Source: Candidatus Flavonifractor merdavium
GTDB lineage: Bacteria; Bacillota; Clostridia; Oscillospirales; Oscillospiraceae
Assembly (NCBI GenBank): GCA_019119335.1
Contig: DWXF01000055.1
Location: forward strand, 1-56,113
Direction of reading: 5' to 3'
DNA: 56,113 nt
The notes under the pieces were generated by a model. The model did not search any database and had not been told where the DNA came from. It saw nothing but the letters and a program-made list of their open reading frames with translations. A program made the position numbers and the translations under genes. Numbering within the stretch: position 1 is the first letter of the stretch; every line of letters begins with the position of its first letter. This document shows, piece by piece, positions 34,269 to 40,577 of this stretch.

Positions 34269-35015
34269 TTAACTATGACTGCCCGGCGCGGCCTCCTGCT
34301 CCGCGGCGGGCGTGTGGTTGGAATAGGGCAAAAATACCGAGGCACGAAACTGGGTTCCGTCGGCGGAAAAGTCTACCGCTCCGCCATGCCGGCGGACAAT
34401 CTCCTGTACGGTGGCCAGGCCCACGCCCGGCCGCCCCGCTCTCTTACTGGAGAGATAGCGGCCGTTCCAAAAAAACAGGGGCCTGGAACAGGAATTGCCC
34501 ACCACCAGAGAGAGGTAGCCGGAGGCGGAAGTGCTCCTGGCCCGCAGCCATCCCGTCCCCTCCCGCTGCAGCGCTTCGATGGCATTTTCCAGCAAATTGC
34601 TCAGCAGCAGACACAGGTCAGGCAGCAGCTCCTCCTGGGGCGGCAGCAGGTCCAGCTTGATATCAGCCTGAAAACCCAGCTCCTCCGCCCGCTGGCGGTA
34701 ATACTTTTCCAGCGACACCAGCACCCAGCTCTGCTTCGGCCCGGTAGTGGAGGGGCTGGAATCGGTAAACGCAGGCGGCTCCACTGAAGAGGTAAGATTC
34801 GTAATATAAAGGTAATGGCGCAGATCATGCCGTAGACGCCGGAGCTCCTCCAGCTCCGTCTGAGCTCTGTTGGAGCTGAGCTGAAGGATGGACCTCAGTT
34901 TCCGGTTTTCCTCCTCCTCCCGCCGCAGCGTCCGGCAAACCCGTCTCAGCCGCAGCAGGAGCAGGCACAGTAAAACCGCCATCAGAGGAATTAAAAGGAC
35001 GAAAAACAGTTTCAT
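34269..35015 (-). CDS. GHKL-type sensor kinase, AgrC-like, with one membrane segment
   Basis: A 248-residue protein with an N-terminal membrane segment (KLFFVLLIPLMAVLLCLLLLRL) and a basic coiled region. A Spo0B-like helix follows (ELRRLRHDLRHYLYI), which has the phospho-accepting His, then a GHKL ATPase domain (DLCLLLSNLLENAIEAL, RPGVGLATVQEIVRRHGG). It lacks the multi-pass sensor domain of AgrC, so what it senses is unclear. The start at 35015 follows GGAGG by five bases; ATG 35027 is possible but too close to its site. It lies 57 bases after a LytTR regulator gene and is probably its partner. Confidence 0.8.
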   Translation of the reverse strand: MKLFFVLLIPLMAVLLCLLLLRLRRVCRTLRREEEENRKLRSILQLSSNRAQTELEELRRLRHDLRHYLYITNLTSSVEPPAFTDSSPSTTGPKQSWVLVSLEKYYRQRAEELGFQADIKLDLLPPQEELLPDLCLLLSNLLENAIEALQREGTGWLRARSTSASGYLSLVVGNSCSRPLFFWNGRYLSSKRAGRPGVGLATVQEIVRRHGGAVDFSADGTQFRASVFLPYSNHTPAAEQEAAPGSHS

Positions 35016-35072
35016 ATCCGCCTCCATGCCTCCTCTCTTTATGGGGCTGTACATTCCGGGCCGTCCAGGCAG

Positions 35073-35765
35073 TTACAGCTCCGCCGTCCCCTCCCGCAGC
35101 AGACAAAACCGCCGGTAGGCCTCCTCCACCGCGTCTTTCTGGCTGCGCCCCAGCGGGATTTCCGTTCCGTCGGACAGGTGTACGCTGCGTCTGGATATCC
35201 CCCGCACATGACAGAGGTTCACCACATAGCTGCGCTGACAGCGAATGAAAATCTGCTGGGGAAGGCGGCTTTCCAGGCTATACATCGGCTCCCGGATGGC
35301 AATATCCTGAATGAAGGTGTGAACCAGGCAGCCCTTTCGGGTGCCCTCCATGCGGATCAGATTGCAGAAGGGAATCTGCATCCTCACCCGGTTGGACAGC
35401 AGCTCCAGCCGCTCCAGGGCCCCCCACCACAGCGGGGCGCAGCGCCGCAGCGCCTTTTCCAGCTGCTCCATGCTGACAGGCTTTTGGAGGAAGCCGCTGG
35501 GATGAAAGAGATAGCTGCGGATAGCGGCCTGCGCATCGGAGGCGCACACAAACAGCGCCTGCTCTTTTCCAGGATAGAAGCGCGGCGGCGGCAGGCCTCC
35601 GTCCAGATCCCAGAACAGGATGGACGAGCCTTCGGCCTCGTCAGACGGCCCCTCCACAAGCTCAACGGACGCACAATAGAGCTCCCTCCATACCCGAAGG
35701 AGCCGGCAAAGCCTGGCTTGCTCCACCGGGTCGTGCATCTGTACAACAAACTGGATCCGCTCCAT
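35073..35765 (-). CDS. LytTR-family regulator with degenerate receiver domain
   Basis: A 230-residue protein. The C-terminal part, from about 130, is a LytTR DNA-binding domain (NLIRMEGTRKGCLVHTF, FIRCQRSYVVNLCHVRGISRRSVHLSDGTEIPLGRS). The N-terminal part has the size of a receiver domain, and an Asp (FWDLDGG) and the Lys-Pro (FLQKPVS) are in the right places. The usual acidic pair at the N-terminus is missing (VVQMHDPVE). Phosphorylation is therefore doubtful. It is first in a minus-strand pair with the GHKL gene at 34269. Its start is divergent from the kinase gene at 35923, and three direct repeats lie between them. Confidence 0.8.
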   Translation of the reverse strand: MERIQFVVQMHDPVEQARLCRLLRVWRELYCASVELVEGPSDEAEGSSILFWDLDGGLPPPRFYPGKEQALFVCASDAQAAIRSYLFHPSGFLQKPVSMEQLEKALRRCAPLWWGALERLELLSNRVRMQIPFCNLIRMEGTRKGCLVHTFIQDIAIREPMYSLESRLPQQIFIRCQRSYVVNLCHVRGISRRSVHLSDGTEIPLGRSQKDAVEEAYRRFCLLREGTAEL

Positions 35766-35898: not shown

Positions 35899-35927
35899 TT
35901 GCCCTTCCCGGTTATTTTGGATATGAT
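35899..35927 (+). promoter_or_regulatory. Possible promoter of the 35923 kinase gene
   Basis: TTGCCC (35899-35904) and TATGAT (35922-35927), 17-base spacer, directly after the direct repeats. If it is real, transcription starts near 35934 and translation must begin later than the ATG at 35923. Confidence 0.45.
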
Positions 35928-37869
35928 AAAAAATAAACAGTATGTCCATGGACACAGTGAGGAGGCGGCGGCTCTGCATTTCAGGACGGAATCCATATAT
36001 CAGAAACGGTGGTTTCTGCTGGCCTTGGTGCTTGCCCTTGCGGCAGTATGGGGCATTTTTTCCTATATCGGCATGACCCAAACCGCCGTGCCGGTCATTC
36101 AGCTGAACCCCGGCACGGAACCGGAACAGTGGACCTTTACCCTGAAAGACGGGACAGTTCTCACACCGGACCAATCCGGCGGCTTTGCGCTGCCCAGCGC
36201 CGACACAGTGCTGTATTGCACCCGCTCTCTGGCGGAATATAGGGACCGCCTCACCTCCAACCCGCTGATCTACGTAAGCGTCTGGAACTGCGACGCGGCT
36301 GTTTTGGCCGACGGCAGACTGGTGGCCGACCCTACCCACCGCTTTCTGTGGCCGGAGGGACGGTTTGAGCCGGCGATGGAACCGTCCGCCGGCGGCGGTC
36401 TCTTCTCCATCGGCAGCGCCAAAGAGCTGACCATCGCCGTCCGTTTTCTGTCGGAGCCCTTTTCCCTGTCCGCCCTGCCCACACTGAGCCTGTATACAGA
36501 GCTTCACGCCTATTCCAGCCAGTGGACCGCCTCTACGGCATCGTCTGCCCTGCCCGCGGGTATATTCCTGGCGGCGGCGCTGTTTTTGGCCGGTCTGTTT
36601 CTGTTTCAGCTCTACTACAAAAAGGCGAATTGGGGGGGGTTGCTGCTGGCTCTGCTGGCGCTGTCCTTCTGCCTGCAAAACACCGTATCATACAGCGTTT
36701 ACGTCATTTGGATGCTCCGAATTCCGGTGGTACTCTGGGGTATCCAGGTATTTCCGGCGCTGATCATCCTGTGGCTGCTGTGGTATCACACCCAGGGGAA
36801 ACTCCGCCGGCTGGGCTGGCTGCTGCCCGTTCTGGGCTCCGTGGGCTTTGCCGGCGGCATTCTCTGGCGTCTGGTTGACAACGCTTCGGGGGCGCGGTGG
36901 ACCAATCTGCTGCAGAGCAAGCTTCTGCCCCTGGCGGTATTGCTGGCTCTGCTGTGCTGCGGCTGGCACGCCTACCGCGGAAACAGCTACTTCCGACGCT
37001 TCTTCCTCTGGGGCGGCGTTCTCGTCGTGTGCGCGGGATGCGGTCTGTTCCTCTCCTTCCTGCAAAACGGGAGCTGGTGGAACTCTTTTTATATTGCCCT
37101 TCGGACGTCTCGTATGATGGGCAATCTGTTCCATCTCATGGAACAGGCAAGCTACCTGCTCCTGCTTCTGTTCTTCCTGATGGCGGTCTATGACTTTGTG
37201 CAGAACATCGTCCACCGCAATCAGGAGCTGCAGGCCCTCACCCTGCAAAACCGCTATACCGCGGAGCACGCCGCCTATCTCAGCCGGTCTCTGGACGATG
37301 CCCGCGCCCTTCGCCACGAGCTCCGCCACCATATGGAAGCGCTGCGGGCTCTGTGCCGAGAGGGCGACCTGCAGCGCATCAGCAGCTACGCCGAGCTGCT
37401 GGGCAGCCAGTGGAACGAGGTGTCCGGCCACTACACCGACAACGCGCTGCTCAACGCCCTGGTCTGCTCCTATGCCGACCGGGCAAAGCGGCTGGGCGCG
37501 GAGTTTGAGGCCGTGGTTCAGGCCCCGGAACAGCTGGCCATTGAGGACGCCGACCTGGCGGTGCTGCTGTCCAACATGGCGGACAACGCGCTGGAGGCCC
37601 TCTCCGCCGCTGCGGACGGACAGGACCGCTGGCTGCGTCTCAAGGTGGAGATTTTTGAAAACACGGGGCTGTTTATCAGCTGCTCCAACTCCTTCCACGG
37701 CCAGCTGAAGCGGGATCACAACGGCGCGCTTCTCTCCACCAAGACCGGACAAGGCCACGGCCTCGGCCTGAAGGCCATGCGCCGGGTGGCGGAAAAGTAT
37801 AACAGCGTGTTGGTGGTGGAAACGCAGCGGCAGGTTTTTCACATTAAAACCTATCTGTACTTCCAATAA
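35923..37869 (+). CDS. Multi-pass sensor kinase with GHKL ATPase domain
   Basis: A protein of up to 648 residues. It has one membrane segment near the N-terminus (RWFLLALVLALAAVWGIFSYIG), an extracytoplasmic domain of about 170 residues, and about seven more membrane segments. A Spo0B-like helix with phospho-His (ALRHELRHHMEAL) follows, then a GHKL ATPase (DLAVLLSNMADNALEAL, GHGLGLKAMRRVAEKY). This is a 7TMR-DISM-like layout. The start is uncertain. The first ATG in frame is 35923, but it lies inside a likely promoter, and the best ribosome site (AGGAGG 35960-35965) points to CTG 35974. It converges on a LytTR regulator gene at 37887, its probable partner. Confidence 0.85.
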   Translation: MIKNKQYVHGHSEEAAALHFRTESIYQKRWFLLALVLALAAVWGIFSYIGMTQTAVPVIQLNPGTEPEQWTFTLKDGTVLTPDQSGGFALPSADTVLYCTRSLAEYRDRLTSNPLIYVSVWNCDAAVLADGRLVADPTHRFLWPEGRFEPAMEPSAGGGLFSIGSAKELTIAVRFLSEPFSLSALPTLSLYTELHAYSSQWTASTASSALPAGIFLAAALFLAGLFLFQLYYKKANWGGLLLALLALSFCLQNTVSYSVYVIWMLRIPVVLWGIQVFPALIILWLLWYHTQGKLRRLGWLLPVLGSVGFAGGILWRLVDNASGARWTNLLQSKLLPLAVLLALLCCGWHAYRGNSYFRRFFLWGGVLVVCAGCGLFLSFLQNGSWWNSFYIALRTSRMMGNLFHLMEQASYLLLLLFFLMAVYDFVQNIVHRNQELQALTLQNRYTAEHAAYLSRSLDDARALRHELRHHMEALRALCREGDLQRISSYAELLGSQWNEVSGHYTDNALLNALVCSYADRAKRLGAEFEAVVQAPEQLAIEDADLAVLLSNMADNALEALSAAADGQDRWLRLKVEIFENTGLFISCSNSFHGQLKRDHNGALLSTKTGQGHGLGLKAMRRVAEKYNSVLVVETQRQVFHIKTYLYFQ

Positions 37870-37872
37870 AAA

Positions 37873-37905
37873 AACAGTTCCCCTTCTCAAAGGGGAACTG
37901 CTTTT
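37873..37905. terminator. Bidirectional terminator overlapping a stop codon
   Basis: AACAGTTCCCCTT and AAGGGGAACTG form a stem with a short loop at 37873-37900, with A and T runs outside it. The minus-strand LytTR gene stops inside the loop (37887-37889), so its last codons form one arm. Confidence 0.85.
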
Positions 37906-38600
37906 TCCACATATCGCACCATTTCCTCCTGCAGCTGGCTGCGGTACCGCCTTCCCAACGGGATGGTCATACCGCTGCGCAGCAGAATCCCATTGGAACG
38001 GATCTCCCGGACCTGCGCCAAATTTACCACATAGCCCTTATGGCAGCGGACAAACCGCTCCCCCAGCTTCCGCTGCATCTCGCTCAGTGTCGCCCGCACC
38101 CGGGCCGGCTCCGCCTGGCCGTCCAGCCGCAGAATCACGTAGTGTCCGTCGGCCTCGCAGTACTGCACCGCCGACACCAAAACGGGCTGCAGCCCGCCGT
38201 CTGCCTCCACCAGCACACTGTCATGCCGGTCCAGAATCCGCCCGATGGAGGCATCCAGCATCTCTTTTTCAATAGGCTTCACCAGATAATCATTGGCCTG
38301 GACCTTATAGCCGTCGATAGCATAATCCCGGCTGATGGTAATGTAGATCAGCTTGGCCCGGCTGCCACTTTCCCGCAAAGCCTGCGCCAGCTGGATCCCG
38401 CTGGTCTCCTCCATCAGTATGTCCAGCAAAAGCAGATCATATTGCCTGTTTCTGTTTGTCACCTGGGCCAACAAATCCTGAGGGTTGTGAAACAGGGAGA
38501 GGGCGACCTCCATCTTCCGCTCCGCAAAAATCTGCTCCGCCCACTGAAAAATCTGACGGCCATCCTTTATGCAGTCATCGCAAACTGCGACACGATACAT
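37887..38600 (-). CDS. LytTR-family response regulator
   Basis: A 237-residue response regulator. The receiver domain is intact: acidic pair in VAVCDDCIKD, phospho-acceptor D60 in LLLLDILME, and Lys in YLVKPIEK. The LytTR DNA-binding domain follows from about residue 135 (CEADGHYVILRL, FVRCHKGYVVNLAQVREI, GMTIPLGRRYRSQLQEEMV). ATG 38600 was chosen because GGGGTGG precedes it and it gives the normal N-terminus (MYRVAVCDD). It converges on the kinase at 35923 and is divergent from the DUF4157 gene at 38742, which makes that gene a possible target. Confidence 0.92.
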   Translation of the reverse strand: MYRVAVCDDCIKDGRQIFQWAEQIFAERKMEVALSLFHNPQDLLAQVTNRNRQYDLLLLDILMEETSGIQLAQALRESGSRAKLIYITISRDYAIDGYKVQANDYLVKPIEKEMLDASIGRILDRHDSVLVEADGGLQPVLVSAVQYCEADGHYVILRLDGQAEPARVRATLSEMQRKLGERFVRCHKGYVVNLAQVREIRSNGILLRSGMTIPLGRRYRSQLQEEMVRYVEKAVPL

Positions 38601-38676: not shown

Positions 38677-38741
38677 AATCCCGGATGTAGTTGGCAATAC
38701 CGTGCATTTTGAGCAAGCATTCCACAGGAGGTAACGGTGTC

Positions 38742-40424
38742 ATGAGCAAAACCCTTGCATCCAGATACAGGTCTCTTCCCCGCACCATACCACAGGAGGC
38801 GAGCACATCCGCTTTTCCTGCCTCCTCCCTGCCCAACTCGGTTCTGGCCGATGCCTTGGAGCAGGAAGGCACAGACGGCCCCATCCTCCCCGACCTGGGT
38901 GAGCGGCTCCTCAGCCGGCAGCCCGGCCGGGATGCCTCCTCCCAGCTCTCCTCCCTGCTGGAATGCAGCGCCTCCCCCGTCGTCCTTCCGGAGGAGACCA
39001 GGATGGGGTTGGAACAGCATTTCGGTTACAGGCTTTCCAACATCAAGTTTACCCAGTCCCCCGCTGTGGCACAGCTGGGCGAGTTGGCCTACGCCCGCGG
39101 AAACGAGGTACGCTTCGCTCCAGGGGCCTTCTCCCCCCACACCCAGGAGGGACAGGAAATACTCCGGCATGAGGTGGCTCACATTATCCAACAGGCGAAG
39201 GGGCAGGTCCAGCCGGAGGGCGGCATGCCCCTCAACACCGACGCAAACCTGGAGGCCTCCGCCGACGCCATGTCGGCGGAGACCGCTCCCCTGTCCTCCG
39301 GTCCTTTGCAGACTCTATCGCCCGCCGCCCCCGCCCAGGCTCCCGCTCAGGGGATTCTGGGCTTCGGCTGGCTGTACAAAAAGCTGAGAGGCCGCTGGGG
39401 AGGCCAGGCAGCCGAGGAGGATGCTCAACGCGCCAGCCGACAGGCGTCCATTCAAAAAGCCAAGGACACGTTTCTGGCCCCAGGCGCCTCTGTGGAGGGG
39501 TTGGAAAAGCTCGATTACAAAACGCTGGCGAAAACTGTGGATAATATGTCGACCATGGCCAGCGACTTCCAAGGCGTGCACCTGAATAGTTTCAAAGCAA
39601 TCAGCTTCCCATTTCTGAAGCGCTTCACAACCTACGCCTGGGCGTTTCCCTCCAAGGACATCGAAATGAATGAGCTCCTATACTCAAAAAACAAAAATCT
39701 AACCAAATCCATCAACAATTATATGGGCAGTCTTGTAGATATGCTCCATGGCATCAGAAATGCTTACGGCTTTAGCATTGCTAATCTAAACTATACCGGC
39801 AATCACGAATTTGGACATGTGATCAATGCGGAGCTCATCCGCGCCGACCAAGAGCGGGCGCGCAAGGAGCGGCAGCGTTGGGATTGGTATGAGTACCAGC
39901 TGGAGGCTCGTGAGATAATCCTGGAGTCCATGAATCAGGACACCAGTCTGACCGAGGAAGAACGAGCCAAGCTCCTGGCCGACAATCCTCTTCCGCAAAA
40001 GCCAGCGGGTGACAGCCCTCATAAAGCTGCTGGCAGCGACTTCTGGGATGACTGGAACAATGACCTTCTGGCCTCCCAAATCATCCAGGACTCCGCCTGG
40101 CAGGCCTACCAGTCAAACACAACATTTCAAGGGAAAATGCGGCAACAGGCCGGCATCCAAACAGGAGACAATCCTGCGGACATTGAACAGAAGGTGCGCA
40201 CCGCCGCCACCACAAAGAATCTGCGGCGTATGCATTATACCTCCGCCTACGGCGCACGCAATCCCGGAGAGCTCTATGCGGAGGCTTTTGCGGACTATTA
40301 TCGGACAAAGAAAAAGCTGGCGCGGGGCACCCGCAGAAATATCCGGGAAAATCCCCTGAGTACAGCCATCGTGCAGCAGTCCATGCGCAGATGGAACGAA
40401 GCACGGAACGCAGGATATCTCTGA
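38742..40424 (+). CDS. DUF4157 (eCIS core) protein with second, lethal-factor-like zinc peptidase domain
   Basis: A 560-residue protein without a signal peptide. Residues 82-152 match the DUF4157/eCIS core domain: LPEETRMGLEQHFG, then NEVRFAPGAFSPHTQEGQEILRHEVAHIIQQ, with a zinc motif HEVAH at 143-147. A low-complexity linker (about 175-205) leads to a second region with its own zinc motif, HEFGH at 355-359. A later ELYAEAFADYY (510-520) is probably the third-ligand helix (E514). This spacing recalls anthrax lethal-factor-like peptidases. DUF4157 proteins are often cargo of contractile injection systems, but none is seen nearby. AGGAGGT at 38727-38733 fixes the start. The region around 39650-39740 is AT-richer than its surroundings. 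It is flanked by a divergent LytTR regulator. Confidence 0.85.
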   Translation: MSKTLASRYRSLPRTIPQEASTSAFPASSLPNSVLADALEQEGTDGPILPDLGERLLSRQPGRDASSQLSSLLECSASPVVLPEETRMGLEQHFGYRLSNIKFTQSPAVAQLGELAYARGNEVRFAPGAFSPHTQEGQEILRHEVAHIIQQAKGQVQPEGGMPLNTDANLEASADAMSAETAPLSSGPLQTLSPAAPAQAPAQGILGFGWLYKKLRGRWGGQAAEEDAQRASRQASIQKAKDTFLAPGASVEGLEKLDYKTLAKTVDNMSTMASDFQGVHLNSFKAISFPFLKRFTTYAWAFPSKDIEMNELLYSKNKNLTKSINNYMGSLVDMLHGIRNAYGFSIANLNYTGNHEFGHVINAELIRADQERARKERQRWDWYEYQLEAREIILESMNQDTSLTEEERAKLLADNPLPQKPAGDSPHKAAGSDFWDDWNNDLLASQIIQDSAWQAYQSNTTFQGKMRQQAGIQTGDNPADIEQKVRTAATTKNLRRMHYTSAYGARNPGELYAEAFADYYRTKKKLARGTRRNIRENPLSTAIVQQSMRRWNEARNAGYL

Positions 40425-40446
40425 GCATTTCCCGCCCCAAAGCATA

Positions 40447-40488
40447 TAAAAATATCCGGGCGTACATAAGCACGCCCGGATATTTTTA
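40447..40488. terminator. Bidirectional terminator
   Basis: TAAAAATATCCGGGCG (40447-40462) pairs exactly with CGCCCGGATATTTTTA (40473-40488), with T runs on both strands. It lies between the DUF4157 gene and alsT. Confidence 0.92.
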
Positions 40489-40577
40489 TATTACCAGTTA
40501 TCCTTATTTTCTTCATACACCTGGGGCAGAATGGCGACCAGATGCCCAACCTGCTCAATTTCAAAAAGCCGCACCCG

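What the first reader, a model, noticed from the sequence alone, without database searches (positions are those of the whole stretch)
38742..40424. Orphan DUF4157 protein with a second, lethal-factor-like zinc peptidase domain
The protein has an eCIS-core domain with HEVAH (143-147). After a linker it has a second zinc motif, HEFGH (355-359), with a later ELYAEAFADYY helix (510-520) that looks like the third ligand. DUF4157 proteins are known as cargo or processing domains of contractile injection systems. No sheath, tube or baseplate genes are seen in 56 kb, and there is no signal peptide. It stands between a LytTR regulator and a terminator. It may be a toxin delivered by an unlinked system, or a two-peptidase effector in which the first domain releases the second.
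Basis: partly seen in the sequence, partly recalled or inferred. Interest (0 to 1): 0.75.

Follow-up and report, generated by a model that had tools for sequence, protein, structure and literature searches.

The report
Orphan cargo toxin of injection system
A gut bacterium carries, away from the genes for its phage-tail-like injection machine, a lone gene for a likely cargo protein whose front half fits the machine and whose interchangeable back half looks like a second zinc protease; this is a new member of a known class of injected toxins.

Summary
Window 38742-40424 (+) encodes a 560-aa protein with a DUF4157/eCIS_core domain (HEVAH 143-147, E171) and a second zincin-type motif (HEFGH 355-359; Y503, E510, E514), invariant in all seven C-termini of its kind that I aligned. 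The genome does hold an eCIS cluster, on another contig. Over 400 family genomes, eCIS_core and CIS_tube co-occur (28 both, 5 and 9 alone). DUF4157 proteins here keep the front and swap the back: N-domains are similar in 1715 of 1953 pairs, C-termini in 68; in three arrays DNA identity collapses at a conserved Q motif. Against a sibling species the gene is a clean single-gene insertion/deletion. An eCIS-type LytTR/GHKL pair lies 3 kb upstream. Best reading: a polymorphic eCIS effector with a zinc-peptidase payload. That architecture was described in 2012 (PMC3482391) and has an experimental analogue, AlgoCIS Cgo1 (PMC8894135). The lethal-factor link is weak (Pfam below cut-off, fold prediction uninformative); self-cleavage is untested. 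New member of a known kind.

The parts
38742..40424 (+). 560-aa DUF4157 (eCIS_core) protein with second zincin-like C-terminal domain
38985..39203 (+). eCIS_core / DUF4157 domain, residues 82-154 (H143, H147; probable third ligand E171 lies just behind it)
   Evidence: PF13699 E 2.7e-15; coordinates
39339..39353 (+). APAQG (residues 200-204): the Q motif that marks the constant/variable junction in related arrays
39804..39818 (+). HEFGH (355-359), second zinc-binding motif
   Evidence: HExGH invariant in 7 of 7 aligned C-termini
40242..40295 (+). S501-D518: SxYG...ExxAExxAD segment with candidate third ligand E510 (or E514) and Y503
   Evidence: S501, Y503, G504, E510, A513, E514 invariant in 7 of 7; sub-threshold ATLF match 493-524
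38708..40448 (+). segment absent from sibling genome G367 (about 40 bp there instead); holds the gene and little else
40444..40491 (.). strong hairpin with A/T tails, probable bidirectional terminator
40549..40556 (.). point at which sibling G367 carries a 10-kb insertion with a different DUF4157 gene
37887..38600 (-). LytTR response regulator, divergent from the effector gene
35923..37869 (+). GHKL histidine kinase, probable partner of the LytTR regulator (partnership inferred from position)
35073..35765 (-). LytTR protein of the type found beside DUF4157 genes in other genomes of this family
   Evidence: 43-52% identity to five copies in DUF4157 loci; genus distribution
34269..35027 (-). small GHKL kinase of the type found beside DUF4157 genes
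   Evidence: 48-58% identity to five copies in the same loci; genus distribution

Best explanation
It is a polymorphic cargo effector of the eCIS encoded elsewhere in the same genome. The N-terminal leader and DUF4157 domain are the constant module that brings the protein to the eCIS tube/spike (inferred, from the AlgoCIS and Streptomyces systems). The C-terminal half (about 217-560) is one of many exchangeable payloads and is most likely a gluzincin-type zinc peptidase that acts in the injected cell (inferred from invariant HExGH plus Y...E..AE). DUF4157 may also cut or release the payload near the Q motif (hypothesis). Shown here: the domains, invariant motifs, constant/variable architecture, presence of an eCIS, co-occurrence with eCIS, and clean presence/absence of the gene. 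Inferred: loading, injection, peptidase activity, target.
For: eCIS_core over cut-off. eCIS cluster on contig C28: sheath, three gp19 tube proteins, CIS_tube+LysM, Phage_base_V spike, gp25, two Baseplate_J, AAA ATPase with winged-helix domain, DUF4280, Pvc16_N. eCIS_core and CIS_tube over 400 family genomes: 28 both, 5 CIS_tube only, 9 eCIS_core only, 358 neither, odds ratio 223; own genus 6 of 6 DUF4157+ genomes have CIS_tube, 0 of 4 DUF4157- ones. 63 DUF4157 proteins: N-domain similar in 1715 of 1953 pairs, C-terminus in 68, 26 C-terminal clusters. In 24 pairs from 3 arrays, DNA identity is at least 57% in every window up to +50 from HExxH and at most 47% at +80; the Q motif lies at +57 to +60. 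DUF4157 genes on a contig other than the CIS_tube contig in 21 of 28 genomes with both (draft contigs). HExGH, Y503, E510, E514 invariant in 7 of 7. Payload matches over Pfam cut-off in 4 of 20 DUF4157 proteins scanned: alpha/beta hydrolase, ADP-ribosyltransferase, inositol polyphosphate kinase, ACTMAP-like protease. Only about 20 bases lie between the stop and the hairpin, so no co-transcribed immunity gene follows.
Against: C-terminal fold not established: no PDB sequence match, AlphaFold mean pLDDT 44 and 43. ATLF below cut-off, and matched by 1 of 7 members only, this protein itself. 9 of 37 eCIS_core genomes lack a CIS_tube match (some are incomplete drafts). The N-terminal 50 residues are only moderately hydrophilic (rank 10 of 41 window proteins), so the published eCIS signal is not clear. 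In AlgoCIS Cgo1, growth inhibition of E. coli did not need either zinc motif (PMC8894135).
Confidence: 0.75

Rival explanations
1. DUF4157 is only a docking/plug domain and never cuts its own protein; the effector is injected whole and the C-terminal peptidase acts as part of the full-length protein.
For: DUF4157 proteins interact with spike/tube-initiator proteins in Streptomyces (PMC13277306, PMC11126660, passages read); Cgo1 effect independent of its motifs (PMC8894135). None of the passages I read reports a demonstrated self-cleavage by DUF4157; I did not read every paper listed.
Against: The HExxHxxQ...E signature is kept, and the constant/variable junction falls at a conserved motif. Neither proves cutting.
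Confidence: 0.45
2. The C-terminal domain is not a peptidase but a zincin-shaped binding domain or another enzyme that uses the HExGH site structurally.
For: No Pfam match over cut-off, no NCBIfam or PADLOC match, two weak unnamed PHROGs matches.
Against: H, E, H and the distal Y and E residues are invariant across 7 members, down to 18% identity to this one.
Confidence: 0.2
3. The protein works inside the producing cell, for example as a maturation protease of the eCIS or of other effectors, and is not cargo.
For: The gene stands apart from the eCIS genes and near regulators.
Against: Not conserved with the eCIS: absent at this place in sibling G367, which has CIS_tube; C-termini are swapped, which fits payloads, not a maturase.
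Confidence: 0.1
4. It is a decaying or passenger cassette without present function.
For: The sibling lacks it; GC3 is low for the window (0.684 vs mean 0.805, third lowest of 41).
Against: Intact 560-codon frame with both zinc sites, AGGAGG and terminator hairpin.
Confidence: 0.12

Closest known systems
PVC-metallopeptidase polymorphic toxins, with ALF-like metallopeptidase payloads (Zhang et al. 2012, PMC3482391; sections 13 and 17 and passages read)
   Same: N-terminal DUF4157/PVC-metallopeptidase, variable C-terminal toxins, an HExxH payload said to be found primarily among PVC-delivered toxins (Firmicutes among the listed phyla), frequent lack of immunity genes
   Different: This C-terminus is below the ATLF cut-off; I found it only in this genome, two other genomes of the family and one of a neighbouring family. 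Their example (Hoch_1736) was not compared here
AlgoCIS cargo Cgo1 (PMC8894135, passages read)
   Same: Disordered N-terminus, DUF4157, C-terminal domain with a second HExxH; shown to be cargo in the tube lumen
   Different: The cgo1 gene lies in its eCIS cluster; this gene is on another contig. Sequences not compared here
eCIS-associated toxins, EATs (PMC8213781, PMC11297309, passages read)
   Same: DUF4157 at the N-terminus, exchangeable C-terminus
   Different: 88% of the EATs in their data set lie up to ten genes from the eCIS operon; this one does not
VgrG2b C-terminal metallopeptidase of a T6SS (PMC6899460, passages read)
   Same: DUF4157-type zinc site in an effector of a contractile system
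   Different: There the DUF4157-type domain is itself the toxin; here it is N-terminal to another zincin-like domain

Membership tests
eCIS_core / DUF4157 (PF13699) | score over Pfam cut-off | tested here: met
   56.8 vs 22 bits
eCIS_core / DUF4157 (PF13699) | HExxHxxQ ... E signature (as given in PMC3482391) | tested here: met
   H143-H147, Q150 and E171 in the translation
eCIS-associated toxin (EAT) | genome encodes an eCIS | tested here: met
eCIS-associated toxin (EAT) | gene within about ten genes of the eCIS cluster (usual, not required) | tested here: not met
   different contigs; no sheath or CIS_tube match on the 56-kb window contig
eCIS-associated toxin (EAT) | hydrophilic, disordered N-terminal signal | tested here: inconclusive
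   GRAVY -0.3 over 50 aa, charge +2 over residues 6-21; the published classifier was not run
eCIS-associated toxin (EAT) | loaded in the particle and toxic | not testable with these tools
   needs particles and assays
Polymorphic toxin with constant N- and variable C-terminus | related proteins share N-domain and differ in C-terminus | tested here: met
ATLF / anthrax lethal factor-like peptidase (PF07737) | score over Pfam cut-off | tested here: not met
   18.9 vs 27.4 bits; 1 of 7 members matches at all
ATLF / anthrax lethal factor-like peptidase (PF07737) | HExxH with distal Tyr and Glu ligand in an ExxAE segment | tested here: inconclusive
   Y503, E510, E514 invariant, but the residue roles in lethal factor are recalled, from no call
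ATLF / anthrax lethal factor-like peptidase (PF07737) | lethal-factor catalytic fold | tested here: inconclusive
   AlphaFold mean pLDDT 44 and 43 with 7 and 5 sequences

The most novel reading that the evidence does not exclude
In these gut Oscillospiraceae the Q motif (x-P-x-Q-G/A) just behind DUF4157 is both the exchange joint of a cassette system and the place at which the DUF4157 zincin cuts to free the payload; and a LytTR/LytTR/GHKL signalling trio ties scattered effector loci to one eCIS, being split in this genome between the eCIS locus and this effector locus. Nothing found here excludes this; the cut and the signalling are untested.
Probability: 0.22. Interest if true: 0.72.

Novelty: new member of a known kind. 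Interest (0 to 1): 0.45.

Why it matters
It gives this group of probable gut commensals an eCIS with an exchangeable, partly unlinked effector set, and shows where to look: DUF4157 genes away from eCIS clusters are real cargo candidates. The sharp DNA joint behind DUF4157 makes the open question of what DUF4157 does (dock or cut) testable with one protein.

Tried and rejected
Scan of genome contigs with the whole protein: 74 pattern matches, no relative. Profile of the C-termini against PDB sequences: 0 hits; NCBIfam: 0 families; PHROGs: two weak unnamed matches, one member each. Plasmids: the DUF4157 part matches 21 records, the C-terminus none at E 0.01; phages: the whole protein none at E 0.01. 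IMG/VR: no relative of the C-terminus in two scans. PADLOC: nothing. AlphaFold: both jobs too weak to compare folds, so no fold search was run.

Is the Q motif universal? I fetched 7 of the 21 plasmid records, from other phyla; 2 of the 7 proteins have a regex match at +40 to +70 from HExxH, and 2 of the 7 end soon after the domain. So it is a feature of this group rather than of all DUF4157 proteins. In this group a regex that I wrote after seeing the sequences hits 61 of 64 proteins, at offsets +23 to +81 (most at +49 to +68), against 12% of shuffled segments and 10 of 225 windows elsewhere in the same proteins; many of the 64 are close relatives, so the number is descriptive. [quoted passage not shown]

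Rows dropped: one search used 64 of the 66 proteins; one search used 63 C-termini after leaving out loci L119-L121 (duplicates), exact duplicates, proteins without HExxH as called, and C-termini under 120 aa. One search compared 6 of 7 array members in L047, 4 of 5 in L064 and 3 of 3 in L060. In 4 of its 24 pairs identity at +60 is still 77-97%; three of these pairs also share a C-terminal cluster. My gene caller is simple and shifts starts (it started this gene at 38856).

Results against the reading: 5 CIS_tube genomes without eCIS_core and 9 eCIS_core genomes without CIS_tube; G271 has CIS_tube and DUF4157 but no close relative of the LytTR/GHKL pair.

Full report
Observation. The gene at 38742-40424 (+) is intact, starts at an ATG behind an AGGAGG and ends about 20 bases before a strong hairpin. 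Residues 82-154 match eCIS_core/DUF4157 at 56.8 bits against a cut-off of 22; the anthrax lethal factor family ATLF matches residues 493-524 at 18.9 bits against a cut-off of 27.4. Two HExxH motifs are present, at 143 and 355.

The machine is in the genome. The window is the whole of contig C27 of an 82% complete, 64-contig genome. Contig C28 holds an eCIS cluster that looks complete: sheath, three gp19 tube proteins, CIS_tube with LysM, Phage_base_V spike protein, gp25, two Baseplate_J proteins, a Mu Gp48-like protein (below cut-off), AAA ATPase with winged-helix domain, DUF4280 protein and Pvc16_N. A second DUF4157 protein lies on contig C14. Two other sheath matches on C44 and C4 look like prophage; that label is my reading of the gene calls.

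Co-occurrence. Among 400 genomes drawn from the same family, CIS_tube is found in 33, eCIS_core in 37, both in 28, neither in 358; odds ratio 223, Fisher p 3e-30. The genomes are related, so the p-value does not count independent events. In the own genus 6 of 6 eCIS_core-positive genomes have CIS_tube and 0 of 4 negative ones. Of the 28 genomes with both, 16 have a DUF4157 gene on the CIS_tube contig and 21 have one on another contig, 9 both. An effector away from the eCIS is therefore usual here, within the limits of draft contigs.

Constant front, exchanged back. Sixty-three DUF4157 proteins with long enough C-termini gave 1715 of 1953 pairs with similar N-domains but only 68 with similar C-termini, in 26 clusters. 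In 24 pairs from three arrays (L047, L064, L060), DNA identity in 10-codon windows is 57-100% up to +50 from HExxH, is at most 60% at +60 in 20 of 24 pairs, and at most 47% at +80 in all 24; the Q motif sits at +57 to +60. In this protein the motif is APAQG, residues 200-204. Of twenty DUF4157 proteins scanned, four have a payload match over Pfam's cut-off (alpha/beta hydrolase, ADP-ribosyltransferase exoenzyme, inositol polyphosphate kinase, ACTMAP-like protease) and sixteen have none.

The second domain. Profile searches found five relatives in two other genomes of the family, G275 and G285. Three of these five were also brought in by name, as contigs of 'uncultured Oscillospiraceae bacterium isolate Lapin-...' metagenome assemblies (contig lengths agree with G275 and G285). 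One full relative lies in another family of the order (G463), also with an N-terminal eCIS_core (65.7 bits). In that order search 4 of 375 genomes had a match, the own genome included; the short matches in the other two (G727, G630) were not used; a quick motif script on G727 printed nothing and I did not pursue it. Across the seven C-termini, residues corresponding to F284, N325, G353, H355, E356, G358, H359, L494, S501, Y503, G504, E510, A513 and E514 are invariant. That is a gluzincin-like pattern; the Y-x6-E spacing agrees with what I recall of lethal factor. H359 and E510 are 151 residues apart, with a variable insert between. No Pfam model over cut-off, no NCBIfam model and no PDB sequence matches the family, and AlphaFold with 7 or 5 sequences failed. 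I therefore call it zincin-like, not a member of the lethal-factor family.

Presence and absence. The sibling genome G367 matches the window at 91% DNA on the left and 96% on the right. Between window 38707 and 40449 it has about 40 bp in place of the 1.74-kb effector segment; about 100 bp further on, at 40549/40556, it carries a 10-kb insertion that includes a different DUF4157 gene. No direct repeat of 8 bases or more was found between the two effector junctions. At the eCIS locus the reverse is true: G367 has an unassigned 219-aa gene and a 450-aa DUF4157 gene (within L075 8979-11433) that are missing from C28 at L092 2935/2943. The C14 region is shared at 94% DNA, effector included. As far as these drafts show, the two genomes share one DUF4157 effector; ours has one private and the sibling two. 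Whether the differences are gains or losses is not settled.

Regulators. The window carries, 3 kb upstream of the effector, a LytTR protein (35073-35765) and a small GHKL kinase (34269-35027). Their closest relatives among the fetched loci (43-52% and 48-58% identity) stand in five DUF4157 loci, L048, L058, L063, L073 and L081, each with a second LytTR protein, as a trio; L048, L058 and L063 lie on the CIS_tube contig of their genome. In the genus, LytTR relatives of at least 45% identity over at least 220 residues, and GHKL relatives of at least 50% over at least 230 residues, occur in the same 5 of 6 eCIS-positive genomes and in 0 of 4 negative ones; these are few and related genomes. In this genome the second LytTR type is on C28 beside the eCIS (L092 2149-2880), so the trio appears split between the eCIS locus and the effector locus. 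Over the fetched loci, LytTR genes lie within three genes of a DUF4157 gene in 11 of 41 loci, against 6.4 on average when LytTR genes are shuffled within each locus; 0 of 2000 shuffles reach 11. No paper in the open library holds both 'LytTR' and 'contractile injection system'.

Known background. Zhang et al. 2012 (PMC3482391; sections 13 and 17 and passages read) described the PVC-metallopeptidase (HExxHxxQ-E), its constant N-terminal place with variable toxins and a proposed autoproteolytic release, and listed ALF-like metallopeptidases as payloads found primarily in this class. Geller 2021 and Danov 2024 (passages read) made DUF4157 a marker of eCIS toxins. AlgoCIS Cgo1 (passages read) is a two-HExxH DUF4157 protein shown to be cargo. 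Interaction of DUF4157 proteins with spike and tube-initiator proteins is reported for Streptomyces (passages read). The finding is thus a new member of a known kind.

Mechanism, shown and inferred. Shown: domains, conserved residues, eCIS in the genome, co-occurrence, cassette exchange, presence/absence. Inferred from other systems: docking of DUF4157 at the spike/tube and loading in the tube. Inferred from motifs: zinc peptidase payload. Hypothesis: DUF4157 cleaves near the Q motif; expression is tied to the eCIS by the LytTR/GHKL genes. The absence of a following immunity gene, and payloads of eukaryotic type in two sister proteins, lean towards a non-kin, perhaps eukaryotic, target; this is weak.

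Noticed in passing
window 34269-35765 and L092 2149-2880: A regulatory trio (two LytTR proteins and a small GHKL kinase), contiguous in five DUF4157 loci of relatives, appears split here between this effector locus and the eCIS locus.
   Followed up: partly
L092 3880-10069 (contig C28): Beside the eCIS ATPase gene lies a partner-switching module: STAS protein, SpoIIE-type phosphatase, HATPase_c_2 (RsbW-like) protein, and a MatE transporter fused to a HATPase_c_2 domain. The fusion is odd.
   Followed up: partly
L047, L044, L064, L057, L060: Arrays of three to seven DUF4157 genes; N-domain pairs are mostly 88-100% identical (one L047 gene and some L044 genes 42-63%), C-termini differ; one gene in L060 (10500-13403 +) has two DUF4157 stretches.
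   Followed up: partly
L075 8979-11433 against L092 2935/2943: A DUF4157 gene and an unassigned 219-aa gene at the eCIS locus of the sibling are missing from this genome.
   Followed up: yes
L108 1880-11983: 10-kb insertion in the sibling next to the effector slot, with flavin oxidoreductase and FMN reductase genes, a LysR gene, a LytTR gene and a different DUF4157 protein.
   Followed up: partly
L087 660-2354; L067 9958-11097; L052 8445-10631: DUF4157 proteins with inositol polyphosphate kinase, ACTMAP-like protease and ADP-ribosyltransferase payloads; the first two are of eukaryotic type (my reading of the family names).
   Followed up: no
genomes G011, G180, G220, G247, G251, G270, G277, G349, G352: Nine genomes with eCIS_core but no CIS_tube match: draft gaps, divergent systems or true orphans.
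   Followed up: no
L108 about 1738-1778: The roughly 40 bp left in the sibling at the effector slot resemble, by eye, the ribosome site and first codons of the effector gene; a remnant is possible, not tested.
   Followed up: no
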